IMG/VR virus record: IMGVR_UViG_3300009379_000006 | Coordinates: 1-20,412 of that record | Reading direction: 5' to 3' (one strand) | Source: a virus | Length of the DNA stretch: 20,412 nt | Shown here: positions 4,109 to 20,049 of the stretch, piece after piece | How the letters are laid out: every line of letters begins with the position of its first letter | How positions within the stretch are numbered: position 1 is the stretch's first letter | Translations under genes and position numbers: made by a program | Notes under the pieces: generated by a model | Databases searched by the model: none | The model's input: the letters and a program-made list of their open reading frames with translations, nothing else | Told to the model about the DNA's origin: nothing

Positions 4109-5645
4109 CGGTGGCGTCCCCCTGGCCCCTGGCTTTGAAGGTCGCCTCGGCCATGTGCTTGATCACGTCGCCGGGGTCCATCTCGGCAAGCAGGCCGGGG
4201 AGCCCTTCAAGGAAATCGTCAAAGGAGTCCACTTTATCTGCCAATGCAAGCACCGGATTGACGACGGGCTCCATTTGGGGCTCCCATTCGGCCAGCATGG
4301 CTTCTTCAATTTCATCCAGGGTATCGGTGGGCATGGCCGACTCGGTGCGGTTCAGGGCCTTGTTTGCCCCCTTGGCTGCATTGTCCGCTGTCGGGGTCGG
4401 TGCACCCAACAGTTCAGCGTCTGGCTTTGGATCGGGAACACCCAACTTATCCCGCGCCCAGGCTGCGGGCACCTTCAGGCCCAGGGGCACCAGCTTTTCA
4501 AGGGCATCGGTCAAAGCCTTGATATCCTCCGGTTCATGAACGGCAAGCATGATGCGGGGATACGCCTCTTGCTTACCGAAGTTGATGTCCACGAAGGGCT
4601 TCACCAGGTCACGGTTCAACGTGTTGGCAAGGGCCTTGGCATCGGCCTTGAGAATGTCTTTTCTTACGTCATCCTGGGCGTCGTCGTTGCCAAGCTTGCC
4701 GGGAGTCCCCTCGCTGCTGGCCGTCTGTCCCAGGACCGCCTTGGAAACCTGCCTGTCCAGCCATTCGGCCAGCTTCAAAAACAGCTCATGGCCACCGGCC
4801 CCCTTGGCCGTCTCCTGGAAGTCGATGCGCATGGTATCGGGCAGCACCGCCGCCGCATCCGAACCGATGTTGGCCACCGCCTTGATCAGGGTCTCGATGT
4901 CCTTTTGCGTGGCGTTGGAATTGTAACGTCCCAGGCGAAGGGGCATACCGAAGATCTCGGCAAAGGCCATCCAGTCCTTCAGGGTAAAGCTCTTGCACAT
5001 GTAGCTGGCCGCCGCCAGCCTGGCCAGCCCGCCCCGAATGGGGATCCCGCTCTTGATACGGGGCGTGTGGATGATGAACTTGAAAGGCGGCAAAGCTATG
5101 CCATTGTGGTGCCTCTCATCCATCAGGCGCAGGGTGCGGCCATCCTCCTGGTCGAACACAAAAAAGCGGGGGTCACGCCACCTGTAGGTGGGGATCCAGG
5201 AGACCCCCTTGTCCCATACAATCTCCACGGTGCTGAACCCCTTGCCCAACCCATCCAGCAGGTCATCCACCGCCTCGCCAAACTCCGGCTTGCGGGTCAG
5301 CTCGCGAACGGCAGCGGCTATCTTCATATCCTCCGGAGACTCCGAGGCGGCCTCCACCGTGGGCTCAATCCCAGAAACGGCACGCTTCCGGGTCCCCAGC
5401 ACACTGGCATAGTGGGGTTCTCGTTCCTCCATCTCTTCGGCCAGGGTGAGGTAGTCCCAGGCGTTGCCGTCGGCTGCGTTGGAAAGGATGGTGGCCAGCC
5501 GCGCGGGCGAGAGGTTGTTGGCCGCCGAAGCAAAGGACCACACAGAGCGGATCCCCATCAGCGTGGGGGCGGCGATCTCTTCGGTTAAGGCGCGCTCGGG
5601 CAAGAGCTTGTTATCCGGGCCATACAGGCGAACGTTTTGTGACAT
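4101..5645 (-). CDS. Portal protein, Mu gp29-like (DUF935)
   Basis: The product is 514 residues and forms the dodecameric DNA gate at the capsid vertex. Diagnostic segments: MEEREPHYASVLGTRKRAVSG (72-92), LGKGFSTVEIVWD (133-145), YRWRDPRFFVFD (154-165), MCKSFTLKDWMAFAEIFGMPLRLGRY (216-241) and WLDRQVSKAVLGQT (295-308), all standard in DUF935 portals. The C-terminal about 100 residues are acidic and low in conservation. The ATG overlaps the terminase stop (TAATG) and the gene overlaps F by eight bases, so packaging and portal genes are tightly coupled. Confidence 0.95.
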   Translation of the reverse strand: MSQNVRLYGPDNKLLPERALTEEIAAPTLMGIRSVWSFASAANNLSPARLATILSNAADGNAWDYLTLAEEMEEREPHYASVLGTRKRAVSGIEPTVEAASESPEDMKIAAAVRELTRKPEFGEAVDDLLDGLGKGFSTVEIVWDKGVSWIPTYRWRDPRFFVFDQEDGRTLRLMDERHHNGIALPPFKFIIHTPRIKSGIPIRGGLARLAAASYMCKSFTLKDWMAFAEIFGMPLRLGRYNSNATQKDIETLIKAVANIGSDAAAVLPDTMRIDFQETAKGAGGHELFLKLAEWLDRQVSKAVLGQTASSEGTPGKLGNDDAQDDVRKDILKADAKALANTLNRDLVKPFVDINFGKQEAYPRIMLAVHEPEDIKALTDALEKLVPLGLKVPAAWARDKLGVPDPKPDAELLGAPTPTADNAAKGANKALNRTESAMPTDTLDEIEEAMLAEWEPQMEPVVNPVLALADKVDSFDDFLEGLPGLLAEMDPGDVIKHMAEATFKARGQGDATDA

Positions 5646-13383: not shown

Positions 13384-13589
13384 TACGCCACCCCCTTGGA
13401 AGAGGGCACCATCCGAACCATCGGGCACCCTTCCGAAGAGGGTACCCAATAGGTCAGGGGCATCCCCGTTGAGCCGCACACCGGGCATTTGCCCTTGCCG
13501 CTGTACAGCGTCTCGCATTGCACGCACATTCGGGTTGTGGAAAGTTTCAGCTTCGGCCCTTCGACCACCACCACACGTTTATTCATCAT
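13383..13589 (-). CDS. Small zinc-ribbon protein
   Basis: The product is 68 residues. Four cysteines (C22, C25, C35, C38) form a compact CVQC-x9-CPVC zinc ribbon after a short beta N-terminus (MMNKRVVVVEGPKLKL). A strong AAGGAGG site lies eight bases before the first of two consecutive ATG codons. The C-terminus contains a near-repeat WVPSSEG / MVPSSKG. Role unknown; it may bind DNA or RNA polymerase. Coupled to GemA by a one-base overlap. Confidence 0.75.
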   Translation of the reverse strand: MMNKRVVVVEGPKLKLSTTRMCVQCETLYSGKGKCPVCGSTGMPLTYWVPSSEGCPMVRMVPSSKGVA

Positions 13590-13608
13590 CGTTAAGCCCT
13601 CCTTAAAC

Positions 13609-13622
13609 GCCCTTTAAAGGGC
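13609..13622. repeat. 14-bp perfect palindrome
   Basis: GCCCTTTAAAGGGC between the MuB stop and the ribosome site of the zinc-ribbon gene. It could be a small operator or a transcript-stabilising hairpin; no U-run follows. Confidence 0.4.
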
Positions 13623-13629
13623 ATGACTT

Positions 13630-14577
13630 CTATGCTTCAAGATCCCGCCACGCCGCCTTCAGGTGCTTCAGGGCCAATGTGTCACCGCGTGATCCGGCCA
13701 CCATCTGCCCCAGCCGGATGGTCTTCACCATCATCCGCAGGGCTCCGGGCTTGGCGGCGATCTGCTCACAGAACGCAACCATCTCCCTGGCCGTCACGCC
13801 CCAGCTCGCGCACAGGGCTTTCACGTCGTCCTCCTTGGGTTTCAGGAGTTTCACCCGCTTGCCGATGCGGCTGAACAGCTGGGCAAAGGTGGCCGACCGA
13901 ACGCCCCGCCCTGTCATCTGGGCATACACCAGGTCGTTGCCCAAAATGGCCAGCCCCACCCCCGTGGCATCGTGGATGCTCCGGAGGGCCTCCAGGCTTC
14001 GCACATTCAAGTGCTGAGCCTCATCAATAATCAAAAGCCCGTCCGTCCCCGTCAGCCGCTCCATGAGAGCCATCTCGATCTTGGCCGCCCGCCCGGACAC
14101 ATGAAGCCCCATCTTCAGGGCCACCCGCTCCAGGCATGCCCCCACCACAGCGGTGGAGGGCGTCATGGTCACGTGCCATACATTGGGGTTGTTGGCGGCG
14201 TACTCCTTGCTGGTCTCGGTCTTGCCCACCCCGGCCCCTCCGAAAATCACCGTGATGTCCCCGGCCATGTGGGCATAAGAGAGGGCCGCCGAAATCCGCT
14301 TGGCCGTGGGCGTCGGGCACCAGGTGACCGCCTTGGGCAGTGCCGTAGTCTGGGCCGCCTTCTTCCTGCGAAAGGTAAGCCACCGCTCCATAGACTCGGC
14401 CATCCTGTCGTTGTCCCCCGGATACTTGCCCTTCATCCACTGAGAGAGGGCAGAGGCATTCACCCCCGCCTCCTGGGCAGCACCCGCCTGGGAAAGACCG
14501 GGGTTGTCGGCAATCTCGTTTCGGACCATTTCGCGGGTGGCATCCATCATTTCTTTATTGACATGGGGCTGGCTCAT
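13630..14577 (-). CDS. B: MuB-like transposition ATPase (target-DNA activator)
   Basis: The product is 315 residues. An N-terminal HTH (NPGLSQAGAAQEAGVNASALSQW, about 25-47) precedes the AAA+ core: Walker A FGGAGVGKT (112-120), Walker B LLIIDEA (181-187) and the sensor-like ILGND (211-215), then an arginine-rich LFSRIGKR near 234-241. A helical C-terminal domain ends the protein, as in MuB. MuB coats target DNA and delivers it to the MuA transpososome, and confers target immunity. Length and domain order match the family. Unusually, it is separated from A by an inverted gene. Confidence 0.95.
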   Translation of the reverse strand: MSQPHVNKEMMDATREMVRNEIADNPGLSQAGAAQEAGVNASALSQWMKGKYPGDNDRMAESMERWLTFRRKKAAQTTALPKAVTWCPTPTAKRISAALSYAHMAGDITVIFGGAGVGKTETSKEYAANNPNVWHVTMTPSTAVVGACLERVALKMGLHVSGRAAKIEMALMERLTGTDGLLIIDEAQHLNVRSLEALRSIHDATGVGLAILGNDLVYAQMTGRGVRSATFAQLFSRIGKRVKLLKPKEDDVKALCASWGVTAREMVAFCEQIAAKPGALRMMVKTIRLGQMVAGSRGDTLALKHLKAAWRDLEA

Positions 14578-14615
14578 TGATATCTCCTTTGAAAAATTGC
14601 TTATTTTTCTTGATT

Positions 14616-14645
14616 AAGACCGAGGCTGCCACCTTGGTCTTTTTC
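14616..14645 (+). terminator. Intrinsic terminator, plus strand
   Basis: A ten-pair stem (AAGACCGAGG / CCTTGGTCTT, one G-T pair, six-base loop) followed by TTTTC on the plus strand, a good Rho-independent form. It lies just before the plus-strand gene at 14661, so it either blocks incoming plus-strand transcription or acts as an attenuator in that gene's leader. A weak promoter TTGAAA (14589-14594), 17 bp, GATTAA (14612-14617) lies upstream of it. Confidence 0.7.
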
Positions 14646-14660
14646 TGCTAAGGGGGCTCC

Positions 14661-15131
14661 GTGAATTCTGAAAGACCGAACCTGATTAAACCGATGACAG
14701 AACAAATTCTTCATGGGTTCGAAACGGCTTATATTTTTATGTCTTCTGACAATTTGTTCCGCGAGCTTCAGACAATCAGTGAAGCCTTGTTGAAAAGTGG
14801 GCCTCTCATTTATGACAAGCTCCCTACTAAAGATGAGGCCATTGATGTCGCCCATGATTTTAAAAACTTCTTTGAAGGCGCTTGCGAGCCTCAGCCTTCA
14901 GTTTTATCTGAAAAGCTTGCGCATCTTCGCGTGACCCAAAGGAAACAACTGTGTTGTCAGCTTCTTCGAGTTGAGCGGGCAATTGCGTTTGTCCAAGATC
15001 TTTCAGGTGAAGATTTTGAGCCGACAAATGTTTTTGCGGTTTCTCCCACATGGTGCGCACGTTGGTGTTCTTTAATTTCTGGTGGGGTTTACCCTGCATA
15101 CATTCCATTTATAGATACCTCCTGCTTTTAG
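14661..15131 (+). CDS. Unknown cargo (moron-like) gene between A and B, opposite strand
   Basis: The product is 156 residues from GTG 14661, with AGGGGG four bases upstream; ATG 14694 is an alternative. No family is recognised. It reads as a mostly helical soluble protein (MSSDNLFRELQTISEALLKS, DEAIDVAHDFKNFFEG, HLRVTQRKQLCCQLLRVERA) with a hydrophobic aromatic end (WCSLISGGVYPAYIPF) and five cysteines. Codon use is more AT-rich than in A or B, which suggests later acquisition. It converges on A, their ends overlapping by three bases. Lying antisense to the early transcript it probably serves the lysogen, such as exclusion of other phages; that is inference. Confidence 0.65.
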   Translation: MNSERPNLIKPMTEQILHGFETAYIFMSSDNLFRELQTISEALLKSGPLIYDKLPTKDEAIDVAHDFKNFFEGACEPQPSVLSEKLAHLRVTQRKQLCCQLLRVERAIAFVQDLSGEDFEPTNVFAVSPTWCARWCSLISGGVYPAYIPFIDTSCF

Positions 15132-17206
15132 ACTTTTTCGCTTCGCTCCCGAATCACCCGCCGCATATTCCCCATCTGCCCGATAAGGATGTCATCCACG
15201 TTCAGATCCTCGCCGTCGTCATCGGGCACATAATCCGCATTCACCGCCATGGGCCTTCGCGTGGGCTGCTTCTGTTCCGGCATGGAGGGAAGCCCGAACA
15301 TCCCTTCCGTCATGCCCGGTTCAGGCATCTCTCCGTCTTCTGAACCTGCCTTAACCAGCTTGTCCGCCACCTCTTCGATGGTCATGCGCTTGGCCAGCTC
15401 CGCAGCTCTATTCTCGGCCTTGATCTTGGCGTTACGGTTTCGGTTATGCCGTGTCGATGCGTCGGTATCGCCAAAACCGGCATCATGCATGCATTTGGCC
15501 TCGCAAAGCATCTGCCCGTTTGCGTCGTATACCCACACGTCTTCGTGCAGCTTGGCCGGATCAAAACGCACCACAACCCGGCTGCCTGTATAGCGGTAAA
15601 GCACGTTGGTCTTGCCGCTGTATCGGTTCGCCCCCACACCCACCGCCGACCCTGCATCCAATGTAAAGGAACCGTCTTTCCCAATTCGCACCGACTCCGC
15701 AGCCATCAGGCACATGCGGAACTGGGCGTCTGTGGCCTTGCGGATGGCGACCTTGGCGTACGACTCGTTGAACACCTCATTAAAGGAGTACACACCGCAG
15801 CCCGTTTCAGTGCGGCGTCCCTTGCGCGCGTTGTATTCGGTCATGCATCGCTTTAGCTCTGCTTCAAACACCTCAAGCTCGATGGCGGTTTCGCCGTAGT
15901 TATCGGGCTTGTTCATCGGATCAGGGCCGGTGTACGCTCCGGCAAACACAGGGCTTTTATCCACCCACTCGCCGATGCCGCCCACGCCGAACTGCCGTTC
16001 CACCGGTTTGGCCTGGCCGTGCCCGTGGCCGTCATGCACGCTGGTCCAGTGCACCTTGCAGCCGAAGGTGGGAATGATGCCCATGGGATCTTCCTCTTTC
16101 ACCTTAAAGCGGTAGCGGTTGGGGACTCCGCCGGTCAGCCACTTGTTTGCCGCCGCCCGTGTGTTGTCGATGGTCACGTCCGTGGGGATCCCAATGCGGA
16201 TCACATCCCCGAAGGCCAGCCGGATCGTGTTCTTGTTCTCGCTCTTGTCCGTGCGCCAGGCGATAACCTTCCGGCTGTACACATCTTGCCAGAACCACGT
16301 CTTAGGGCGTCCCACCGTGCCGTCCGGCCACTTCACAAACACGTTGTGCTTGTACCCGTCGCCGTTGATCCATTGGGTGGCATACATCCCTCGCACCGTT
16401 CGGCGCTGTGCGGGCAGCATCTTCATCAGCCCTGGGCTCCCCTCGCGAAGCAGGGCCACCGTGGTCACATCCACCTCACGGTTGATGCGTCGTTTAAGGG
16501 TGTCCAGAGAGGGCACCTGCCACCCGTGGGCCTTGGCCATGTCTTTTACGCGTCGGTAGCAGTCGCTGTACGTTGGTTTTTCCGGCCTGAGATAGTCAGC
16601 CTTGAACACCTCCCACGCCTCATCCGAAAACGCCGCCTTGGGTTTTCCCGCCGCCCGGCTATTGGTAAGGAGCGCAGGGAGCCAGTCCTCCCGTGCAATG
16701 CCCTTCACCTCCCCGTACCAGCGGTAAATCGTGGCCCGGTTTTTCCCGCTGGCCTTGGCCACTTCCCTCACTGTCCGTGTTCGCGGCCCGCCGGAGGCCA
16801 CTAGGTCCTCGATCATATGAAGGATGCCCAGGGCCTCGTTAGCGCGCGCCCTTTGTTTTGGCGTTGCCTTCTCCCAGGCGGCCCATAAAGAGTCCCGGTT
16901 ATAGGCAGGCGGGGCGTCGTCTTTTTTATCTGCCCCCGTAGTCTCGGCCACCTGGGCCAGGGCTTCGGGCGTGATCAACTGCGCAGCCACCTCGACAGGG
17001 TTGACCTGGGACAGAAAGGCGAGGCGGATGTCTGCGGATATATCTGTTAAAGCAAACCGCTTGATTTGGCCGTTACGTCCTGGCCCCGGTACCAGCTTCG
17101 GTTCCCACTCTTCCTTTTTGGCCCGGTACTCGACGGCTTGCCTTGAAAGTCCAAGAACACTTGCAATTTCAGAGATTGTGGCCGTTTGTATTGGCATGTT
17201 TGTCAT
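15128..17206 (-). CDS. A: MuA-like DDE transposase
   Basis: The product is 692 residues from ATG 17206, with AGGTGG five bases upstream; an in-frame GTG nine bases earlier falls inside that site. An N-terminal HTH (ISEIASVLGLSRQAVEYRAK, 11-30) matches the MuA-type DNA-binding start. End-binding helical domains follow (including ARANEALGILHMIEDLVASG and REVAKASGKNRATIYRWYGE). The catalytic triad is D283 (INGDGYKHN), D347 (TIDNTRAAAN) and E403 (KPVERQFG), close to MuA D269, D336 and E392 with the same D-E spacing. The C-terminal tail (LAKRMTIEEVADKLVKAG) would contact MuB and ClpX. It performs replicative transposition. Confidence 0.97.
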   Translation of the reverse strand: MTNMPIQTATISEIASVLGLSRQAVEYRAKKEEWEPKLVPGPGRNGQIKRFALTDISADIRLAFLSQVNPVEVAAQLITPEALAQVAETTGADKKDDAPPAYNRDSLWAAWEKATPKQRARANEALGILHMIEDLVASGGPRTRTVREVAKASGKNRATIYRWYGEVKGIAREDWLPALLTNSRAAGKPKAAFSDEAWEVFKADYLRPEKPTYSDCYRRVKDMAKAHGWQVPSLDTLKRRINREVDVTTVALLREGSPGLMKMLPAQRRTVRGMYATQWINGDGYKHNVFVKWPDGTVGRPKTWFWQDVYSRKVIAWRTDKSENKNTIRLAFGDVIRIGIPTDVTIDNTRAAANKWLTGGVPNRYRFKVKEEDPMGIIPTFGCKVHWTSVHDGHGHGQAKPVERQFGVGGIGEWVDKSPVFAGAYTGPDPMNKPDNYGETAIELEVFEAELKRCMTEYNARKGRRTETGCGVYSFNEVFNESYAKVAIRKATDAQFRMCLMAAESVRIGKDGSFTLDAGSAVGVGANRYSGKTNVLYRYTGSRVVVRFDPAKLHEDVWVYDANGQMLCEAKCMHDAGFGDTDASTRHNRNRNAKIKAENRAAELAKRMTIEEVADKLVKAGSEDGEMPEPGMTEGMFGLPSMPEQKQPTRRPMAVNADYVPDDDGEDLNVDDILIGQMGNMRRVIRERSEKV

Positions 17207-17224
17207 CGTGTCCACCTGATACGT

Positions 17225-18770: not shown

Positions 18771-19535
18771 ATGGGGATCGAAGCAGCGATAAACCGAATT
18801 AAAAATGCAACAGGAATCAAGACCCAGAAGGAATTGGCAGATCTACTTGACGTGCCACAGCCCTCAATCTCTGATGCAAAGAAGAGGGGCAACATTCCCG
18901 CAATTTGGCTTGTCAAGCTTTGTAATAGCTACGATCTTAATCCTAAGTGGGTTCAGGACGGGGCTGAACCGATATACATTGGTAGGGGAAATGAAGGGGA
19001 GAGTGTAGGCGCACCCACACAAAAGGCCATACGGCAGCCGTCATGCATACGCCAGGAATGCAGGATTGAAGAGGATGAGAACGGGGAGCTGAAGGTACCC
19101 GTCTTGGAAGCGCCGGAGGTGGACCATTACGATTACATCCCCATGGTCGAGGCCCGGTTGTCGGCGGGAGGCGGGTCCTTTATGGCCAGCGAGCGGATCA
19201 GGGACTACTACGCCTTCCGCAAGGCCTTCATCGCCAACGTCGCCACATCAGTAAAAAAACTTATCCTGATGCGTGTCTCCGGCGAATCCATGGAACCCGA
19301 GATCCGAAACGGGGCCACCGTCATGATTGACCTGGGCCGCAGGCACATCAAAAACAACTGCATCTTCGCCCTGGGCCTCGGTGACACCATATCTATTAAG
19401 GAGCTTGAAATGCTTCCCGGTGGCATCGTTCGCGTCATCTCCAAGAATCCCCAGTACCCCGCATACGAAGCCGACGCCAAGGACCTCCGCATCATCGGGC
19501 AGGTGATCTGGGGGGACAGATTGTACCCGCTATAA
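18771..19535 (+). CDS. LexA/CI-like phage repressor (HTH + S24 peptidase)
   Basis: The product is 254 residues from ATG 18771, with GAGGG four bases upstream. An N-terminal HTH (TQKELADLLDVPQPSISDAK, 18-37) is followed by a linker and an S24 autoprotease domain: cleavage site A132-G133 (ARLSAGGGSF), catalytic S173 in VSGESMEPEIRNG and K210 in DTISIKELE. This is the form that self-cleaves when RecA is activated, so the lysogen is probably SOS-inducible. Mu's own repressor is not of this type. The DNA is visibly more AT-rich in the HTH half than in the protease half, suggesting domain exchange. It is divergent from the early operon. Confidence 0.93.
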   Translation: MGIEAAINRIKNATGIKTQKELADLLDVPQPSISDAKKRGNIPAIWLVKLCNSYDLNPKWVQDGAEPIYIGRGNEGESVGAPTQKAIRQPSCIRQECRIEEDENGELKVPVLEAPEVDHYDYIPMVEARLSAGGGSFMASERIRDYYAFRKAFIANVATSVKKLILMRVSGESMEPEIRNGATVMIDLGRRHIKNNCIFALGLGDTISIKELEMLPGGIVRVISKNPQYPAYEADAKDLRIIGQVIWGDRLYPL

Positions 19536-19584: not shown

Positions 19585-20049
19585 ATGGGTAATCAAAGTT
19601 TGAAATGTAAATCATGTGGAGAATACGTTGAAATTAAGGCTAAGGTTTGCCCGCATTGTGGGCAGAAAAATCCGACGTTATCAGCAAAGGATCTGGTCAT
19701 CGCTGTCATGCTGATAGTCGCACTGATTATAGGTTGGAAGGCCTTTAGTGCTCCTGAACCTGTGTCCGCTGCTAAAGAAAAAATAGAACTCCACTATATC
19801 AAAAATGAAATCTATCGCGCTGTTGACTGCAAACTAAAAAAAGTCGACGGAGATTATTATGTTCGTTGTTTCCCCGCAGGTTCTGATGTTATCGGTGGTT
19901 TGTTTCTGATTGAATATGACGACAATGATGCGTATACAATTATCACCGTAAACGGTAAAGCATTGCAGCACGCTAAAAAAGGATTAGGATTAGAAATATC
20001 CCGCCTTGATGCGCCACGAGATGTTTCAGAAATTCTAAAGCATTTTTAA
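19585..20049 (+). CDS. Zinc-ribbon membrane protein, left-end cargo gene
   Basis: The product is 154 residues from ATG 19585, with GGAGG five bases upstream. A C4 zinc ribbon (CKSCGEYVEIKAKVCPHCG, C8, C11, C22, C25) is followed by one transmembrane helix (about 37-54, LVIAVMLIVALIIGWKAF) and a 100-residue outer domain with DCKLKKVDGDYYVRCF and GGLFLIEYDDNDAYTI segments. The ribbon would be cytoplasmic and the rest periplasmic. The gene is AT-rich compared with the head genes. Read in the same direction as the repressor and closed by a terminator, it is probably expressed in the lysogen; surface exclusion or host conversion is a guess from position. Confidence 0.8.
   Translation: MGNQSLKCKSCGEYVEIKAKVCPHCGQKNPTLSAKDLVIAVMLIVALIIGWKAFSAPEPVSAAKEKIELHYIKNEIYRAVDCKLKKVDGDYYVRCFPAGSDVIGGLFLIEYDDNDAYTIITVNGKALQHAKKGLGLEISRLDAPRDVSEILKHF

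What the first reader, a model, noticed from the sequence alone, without database searches (positions are those of the whole stretch)
14577..15131. Inverted, unrecognised gene inserted between transposition genes A and B
In Mu A and B are adjacent and cotranscribed. Here a 156-residue gene on the opposite strand lies between them, AT-richer than its neighbours, with its own ribosome site, a weak promoter and an intrinsic terminator just upstream. Its mRNA would be antisense to the early transcript. Such placement suits a gene expressed in the lysogen, such as a defence or exclusion factor, and may be an insertion hot spot.
Basis: partly seen in the sequence, partly recalled or inferred. Interest (0 to 1): 0.65.

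Follow-up and report, generated by a model that had tools for sequence, protein, structure and literature searches.

The report
Inverted prophage gene overlapping early gene
Between two transposition genes of a Mu-like phage lies a backwards gene of a previously unnamed family; relatives carry it in other places of the same region, always with a second open frame on the opposite strand, an arrangement that in one Pseudomonas phage is known to block rival phages.

Summary
A 156-codon plus-strand ORF (14661-15131, 43.5% GC) fills the gap between MuA and MuB. It is a real gene: homologous frames lie inverted in the early region of Mu-like prophages in three further groups (L027/L025/L148, L145, L064), as close as 32% identity over 146 aa (E=4e-11), and the plus frame is by far the best conserved of the six. 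The nearest relative (L082, MuA 63%) has an empty A-B junction. No Pfam, PHROG, NCBIfam, PADLOC or PDB family matches.

Every homologue has one (82-128 codons) in the same phase. That phase is more open than synonymous shuffling allows in three independent lineages (P 0.0022-0.021; 1 of 56 control genes at 0.05 or below). Between L027 and L145 the inverted gene's synonymous sites are frozen opposite the early ORF's second half (6 of 32 four-fold sites changed; 139 of 213 in MuA).

Closest known system: Fc02 olg1/gene 10, where both strands' proteins give superinfection exclusion. Best reading: a lysogeny-strand accessory gene, probably exclusion, overlapping an early ORF. Transcription, promoter and function are not shown.

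The parts
14661..15131 (+). inverted gene ('anti' gene), 156 aa, GTG start; family with C-terminal W-x-x-R-W ... YPAYI-like motif
   Evidence: homologues and frame test; no hits in Pfam/PHROGs/NCBIfam/PADLOC/PDB
14650..14656 (+). ribosome-site-like stretch (AAGGGGG) in front of the GTG
   Evidence: sequence
14616..14641 (+). terminator-like hairpin upstream of the inverted gene (10 pairs, T tail)
14860..15108 (-). early-strand ORF nested inside the inverted gene, 82 aa, ATG led by AGGAGGT; first codon positions face first codon positions
   Evidence: P=0.0022; controls
14601..14855 (-). second early-strand ORF, 84 aa, starts 4 nt after the first one stops; its openness is not exceptional
   Evidence: P=0.27 for this antisense frame
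15117..15123 (-). Shine-Dalgarno-like site (AGGAGGT) after the MuA stop; probably the ancestral MuB ribosome site (compare L082)
15128..17215 (-). MuA-type transposase; its stop codon overlaps the stop codon of the inverted gene
13630..14577 (-). MuB-type transposition ATPase
18771..19535 (+). CI/S24-type repressor, same strand as the inverted gene

Best explanation
The 156-aa plus-strand ORF is a genuine accessory gene carried on the lysogeny (repressor) strand of a Mu-like phage, inserted as cargo into the A-B junction. It belongs to a small, so far unnamed family that sits inverted, tail-to-tail behind an early gene, at different points of the early region in different Mu-like phages. On the early strand the same DNA carries an SD-led open frame, so the cassette is two-faced: one frame for the prophage state and one for the early transcript. 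By analogy with the Fc02 olg1/gene 10 module, the inverted protein is most likely made in the lysogen and protects it from other phages (superinfection exclusion). Shown: coding of the plus frame, homologues, cargo status, and an excess of openness in the opposite frame. Inferred: expression in the lysogen, translation of the early-strand ORF, and exclusion.
For: Homologues: L027 4e-11, L025 8e-11, L064 2e-4 by tblastn on the fetched loci; L145 68% identical to L027; L148 in a bacterial genome. Strand test: plus-frame scores 135/88/104 (z 20.0/14.8/16.2) against at most 70/45/36 in all other frames. dN/dS of the plus frame 0.385, 0.251, 0.186; of the opposite ORF 0.99, 0.96, 2.36. Empty site in L082. 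Opposite frame exceptionally open: window P=0.0022, L145 0.021, L064 0.020, L027 0.044, L148 0.17; 1 of 56 control genes at P<=0.05. Simulated drift under plus-frame constraint alone keeps the opposite ORF open in only 4-5% of runs at the L027-L145 distance, 28% at the L027-L148 distance. Four-fold sites changed, L027-L145: 6 of 32 in codons 27-90 against 139 of 213 in MuA, Fisher 1e-6. Precedent with the same layout: PMC9936078 (records read).
Against: No consensus promoter in 13500-16500, and the terminator-like hairpin lies between any promoter further upstream and the gene. No defence or exclusion family matches, and both AlphaFold models are poor (mean pLDDT 41 and 47). No sequence relation to Fc02 Olg1 (hhalign probability 0.05%). 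In the window the repressor lies 3.6 kb beyond the gene, so a shared transcript as in Fc02 would have to cross all of MuA. L148's openness is not significant (P=0.17), and the opposite ORF's dN/dS is near or above 1, so its translation as a selected protein is not proven. In the window the opposite strand is split into two ORFs in different frames.
Confidence: 0.5

Rival explanations
1. The early-strand ORF is a ribosome relay: it makes no useful protein but keeps ribosomes on the early transcript while it crosses the inverted gene, preventing Rho-dependent polarity on MuB and later genes. The inverted gene itself is real.
For: The opposite ORF has an SD-like site and ATG right behind the upstream early gene in all members; it is open beyond chance yet its dN/dS is about 1 or more. 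In the window two ORFs cover 15108-14601 with 4- and 23-nt gaps.
Against: In the gammaproteobacterial members the second half of the opposite protein is strongly conserved and freezes synonymous sites of the inverted gene, more than a mere open frame needs.
Confidence: 0.25
2. The main product is an antisense RNA: plus-strand transcription from the insert represses A/B expression in the lysogen, and the protein is secondary.
For: Geometry: the transcript would be antisense to the A-B mRNA junction.
Against: The plus frame is under protein-level constraint and the gene sits at other early junctions in relatives, so A-B repression cannot be the common role.
Confidence: 0.12
3. The early-strand ORFs are the real genes and the plus ORF is their antisense shadow.
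For: Good SD and ATG at 15108; PHROGs holds the early-strand ORF, not the inverted one, for the Pasteurellaceae prophages (phrog_21703, phrog_25056).
Against: Frame comparison: window-L027 135 in the plus frame against 59 in the early-strand frame; plus-frame dN/dS below 1 and early-strand near or above 1. The SD is explained by the ancestral MuB site.
Confidence: 0.04
4. Chance ORF or decaying relic in an AT-rich spacer.
For: Long spurious antisense ORFs do occur here (for example 4155-5588, 477 codons, opposite the portal-like gene).
Against: Shuffle P=0.0034; homologues with conserved frame and purifying selection.
Confidence: 0.03

Closest known systems
olg1/olg2 versus gene 10 of Pseudomonas transposable phage Fc02 (B3-like); PMC9936078
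   Same: Mu-like transposable phage; lysogeny-strand gene overlapping antisense with an early-operon gene; in gammaproteobacterial members of our family the pair sits directly behind ner and upstream of the repressor, as in Fc02; olg1 and gene 10 also have first codon positions facing each other (coordinates); a terminator-like stem-loop lies near the start.
   Different: No detectable sequence relation. Olg1 is 74 aa and lies opposite a larger early gene; here the inverted gene is the larger. In the window the cassette is at A-B, far from the repressor. Fc02 has RNA-seq and exclusion assays; here there are none.
Inverted ORF plus early-strand ORF at A-B of Pasteurellaceae Mu-like prophages (L110, L111, L117-L120, L124, L125)
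   Same: Same junction, same inverted orientation, same pairing with an SD-led early-strand ORF, same phase; inverted frame better conserved than the early-strand frame.
   Different: Unrelated protein family (hhalign probability 0.2%); only partial overlap of the two frames.
Prophage morons in general (recalled concept)
   Same: Single accessory gene inserted between core phage genes; AT-rich; apparently for the lysogen.
   Different: No own promoter found; the insertion overlaps a functional-looking ORF on the other strand.

Membership tests
WxxRW/YPAYI inverted-gene family defined here | sequence homology in the plus frame | tested here: met
WxxRW/YPAYI inverted-gene family defined here | inverted relative to early genes of a Mu-like phage, tail-to-tail with the preceding early gene | tested here: met
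   window; L027; L064; L145; L148; 3' ends
Fc02 olg1/gene 10 type exclusion module | homology to Olg1 or gene 10 | tested here: not met
   (hhalign probability at most 1%); no convincing hit in the phages collection, which holds Fc02 and B3
Fc02 olg1/gene 10 type exclusion module | lysogeny-strand ORF overlapping an early-operon ORF | tested here: met
   (ORFs and their conservation; translation not tested)
Fc02 olg1/gene 10 type exclusion module | transcribed in the lysogen from a promoter upstream that also serves the repressor | not testable with these tools
   no RNA data; no consensus promoter in the window
Fc02 olg1/gene 10 type exclusion module | gives superinfection exclusion | not testable with these tools
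   needs phage challenge
Known anti-phage defence families | match to a PADLOC model | tested here: not met
   (4 members, 0 families); for the Pasteurellaceae family (8 members, 0)

The most novel reading that the evidence does not exclude
Mu-like phages carry interchangeable two-faced cassettes: DNA that codes on both strands in a fixed phase, one protein for the lysogen and one for the early lytic operon, arisen at least three times from unrelated sequences (this family, the Pasteurellaceae family, Fc02 olg1/gene 10) and inserted at several early-operon junctions.
Probability: 0.35. Interest if true: 0.78.

Novelty: new variant of a known kind. Interest (0 to 1): 0.6.

Why it matters
Antisense gene pairs are usually dismissed as annotation noise. 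Here two unrelated families at the same junction, a third published module with tested exclusion activity, and a calibrated openness test point to a repeated design in transposable phages: lysogeny and lytic frames sharing one stretch of DNA. If right, it gives a simple rule for finding prophage-expressed exclusion genes that annotation overlooks, and a tractable system for testing dual coding.

Tried and rejected
Family searches of the inverted protein and its relatives gave no family (Pfam; PHROGs 6, 56; NCBIfam 53; PADLOC 54; PDB 57, best E=0.73). Rfam has nothing at 14000-15700. tblastn of the window protein in phages gave 5 matches at E 4 to 8, judged chance; relatives gave none at E<=1; plasmids none. 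Pattern scans with the window protein in viral and genome contigs found no relative: the relatives were found by comparing it with loci fetched for MuA. Later viral scans with the family found only one new member, L145. Scans with the 82-codon early-strand ORF and with MuB found nothing.

Whole-genome samples with the window protein or family profile: 17 of 291 genomes at E<=0.1 in the order of L082's genome, best 6e-4, judged chance (the best, L131, gives 0.015 and lies in an unrelated region); 0 of 19; 1 of 394; 0 of 345; 1 of 152 and 1 of 369, both the same genome as. So the family is rare.

Two AlphaFold jobs gave mean pLDDT 41 and 47; no fold search was run because such models give meaningless matches. 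A relation of this family to the Pasteurellaceae family and to Fc02 Olg1 was tested and rejected. My first idea that the SD-led early-strand ORF alone is the gene was rejected by the frame comparison. The first simulation wrongly counted the native stop of the opposite ORF; it was redone as and only that is used.

Full report
What is there. The window is a 20,412-base virus record holding part of a Mu-like phage. A (15128-17215) and B (13630-14577) run on the minus strand. Between them lies a plus-strand ORF, 14661-15131, 156 codons from GTG. Its GC is 0.435, while the 500-base windows over A and B are mostly 0.59-0.64. The ORF's stop overlaps the MuA stop. Dinucleotide shuffles of the 554-base interval reach 156 codons in 0.34% of 5000 trials. 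The consensus scan finds a 10-pair terminator-like hairpin at 14616-14641 but no promoter on either strand.

Is it a gene? Family libraries know nothing of it. Direct scans of viral and genome contigs with the protein found no relative. Comparing it with loci fetched for MuA did: L027 (E=4e-11, 32% over 146 aa), L025 (8e-11) and L064 (2e-4). L027 led to L145 (68% identical), and the family profile led to one bacterial genome, G666 (L148). These are six records in four groups: window; L027, L025 and L148; L145; L064. Scored in all frames, the plus frame wins clearly: window-L027 135 (z 20.0) against at most 70 elsewhere; window-L064 88 (14.8) against at most 45; L027-L064 104 (16.2) against 36. 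dN/dS of the plus frame is 0.385 (L027-L145), 0.251 (L148-L145) and 0.186 (L027-L148). The conserved core is a C-terminal W-x-x-R-W followed by a YPAYI-like motif.

Is it cargo? The nearest relative, L082 in a Desulfobacterales assembly (MuA 63%), has the MuA stop, AAAAGGAGGTACCCC and the MuB start in direct succession. In the window the site behind MuA (AGGAGGTATCTATAAATG) and the site before MuB (AAGGAGATATCAATG) both resemble it, as if the insert had split or duplicated the MuB ribosome site. Of 125 MuA loci (L002-L126), 122 had A and B located; 108 have 86 nt or less between them (three negative values are start-choice artefacts) and 14 more than 120. The 14 are: four with one early-strand ORF of 99-112 codons (L015, L018, L037, L083); eight Pasteurellaceae loci (L110, L111, L117-L120, L124, L125, of which six come from one Avibacterium strain); L121 (192 nt, no ORF of 50 codons); and L123, an artefact of a broken MuA frame. 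The loci are redundant, since viral and genome collections share prophages.

In our family the place varies: behind MuA in the window, behind ner and upstream of MuA in L027, L145 and L148, and behind a DUF3164-like gene downstream of B in L064. The names ner and DUF3164 for these relatives are recalled from the look of the proteins, not from a call. The gene is always inverted and tail-to-tail with the preceding early gene.

The opposite strand. In every member an ATG with a Shine-Dalgarno-like site follows the preceding early gene and opens a frame inside the inverted gene: 82 codons in the window, 128 in L027, L145 and L148, 90 in L064. In all of them first codon positions face first codon positions. 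I asked how long this frame stays open if the inverted protein is kept and its synonymous codons are shuffled: window P=0.0022, L064 0.020, L145 0.021, L027 0.044, L148 0.17. Of 56 ordinary genes from four of the same sources, 1 gave P<=0.05 in that phase, so the test is calibrated. The other antisense phases are not unusual, apart from L064 phase 0 (P=0.036). Drift simulated under the inverted gene's constraint alone keeps the opposite frame open in 4-5% of runs at the L145 distance and 28% at the L027-L148 distance. Between L027 and L145, four-fold sites of the inverted gene changed at 7 of 8 in codons 1-26 (no opposite ORF), 6 of 32 in codons 27-90 and 9 of 16 in codons 91-150, with 139 of 213 in MuA (Fisher 1e-6 for 27-90). 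L148-L145 gives 9 of 30 in codons 27-90 against 128 of 219 (P=0.005). L027-L148 gives 8 of 35 against 139 of 281 (P=0.004), but there codons 1-26 are also low (1 of 8). The frozen part faces the well-conserved second half of the opposite protein. Against this, the opposite ORF's dN/dS is 0.99, 0.96 and 2.36, and between window and L027 its frame is no better conserved than other antisense frames. So the opposite frame is kept open and, in one clade, probably codes; in the window only openness is shown.

An independent parallel. The Pasteurellaceae A-B intervals hold an inverted ORF of 144-172 codons and an SD-led early-strand ORF of 99-101 codons, in the same phase (four loci read). The inverted frame is the better conserved between genera (L111-L119 111, z 15.1, against 60, z 5.7), though its part outside the overlap shows no significant similarity between those genera (z -0.5). 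The early-strand ORFs are already families of unknown function (phrog_21703, phrog_25056); the inverted ones have no convincing match in any library searched. hhalign sees no relation to our family.

How it most likely works. The one characterised case is Fc02, a B3-like transposable phage of Pseudomonas aeruginosa (PMC9936078; I read the abstract, passages and sections 3.3, 3.4 and 4). There the lysogen transcribes olg1 and olg2 and the repressor from pC1, gene 10 lies opposite them behind ner in the early operon, and both Olg1 and gene 10 protein give superinfection exclusion when expressed; Olg2 was not detected and showed no exclusion. In our L027, L145 and L148 the cassette lies in the same place, behind ner and upstream of the repressor on the repressor's strand. 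Olg1 and gene 10 also have first codon positions facing each other, by their coordinates. There is no sequence relation. By this analogy I think the inverted protein is made in the lysogen and excludes other phages. The steps not shown are transcription, translation of either frame, and function. In the window the cassette is 3.6 kb from the repressor, so it would need its own promoter, which was not found.

Novelty. The overlapping lysogeny/early layout is in print for Fc02; my searches for the same in other transposable phages (search listings only) listed nothing else of the kind, within the open-licence library searched. The protein family, its movement among junctions and the second family at A-B appear new. 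I file it as a new variant of a known kind.

Noticed in passing
L110:8048-8645, L111:3338-3914, L117:8019-8553, L119:8001-8520: A second, unrelated inverted gene family sits at the A-B junction of Pasteurellaceae Mu-like prophages, partly overlapping an SD-led early-strand ORF in the same phase; only the early-strand ORF is in PHROGs.
   Followed up: partly
window 19585-20049 (+): AT-rich ORF with a zinc-ribbon-like CxxC start and a hydrophobic stretch, just downstream of the repressor on its strand: a candidate lysogen-expressed gene.
   Followed up: no
window 4155-5588 (+): A 477-codon open frame opposite the portal-like gene; a reminder that long antisense ORFs in GC-rich phage genes are not evidence of a gene by length alone.
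   Followed up: no
L015:3901-4200, L018:3329-3631, L037:4146-4484, L083:4230-4529: Four Mu-like loci have an early-strand ORF of about 100 codons between A and B with no convincing inverted partner.
   Followed up: partly
L123:7179-8050: The large apparent A-B gap holds the rest of the MuA frame, so this MuA reads as broken.
   Followed up: no
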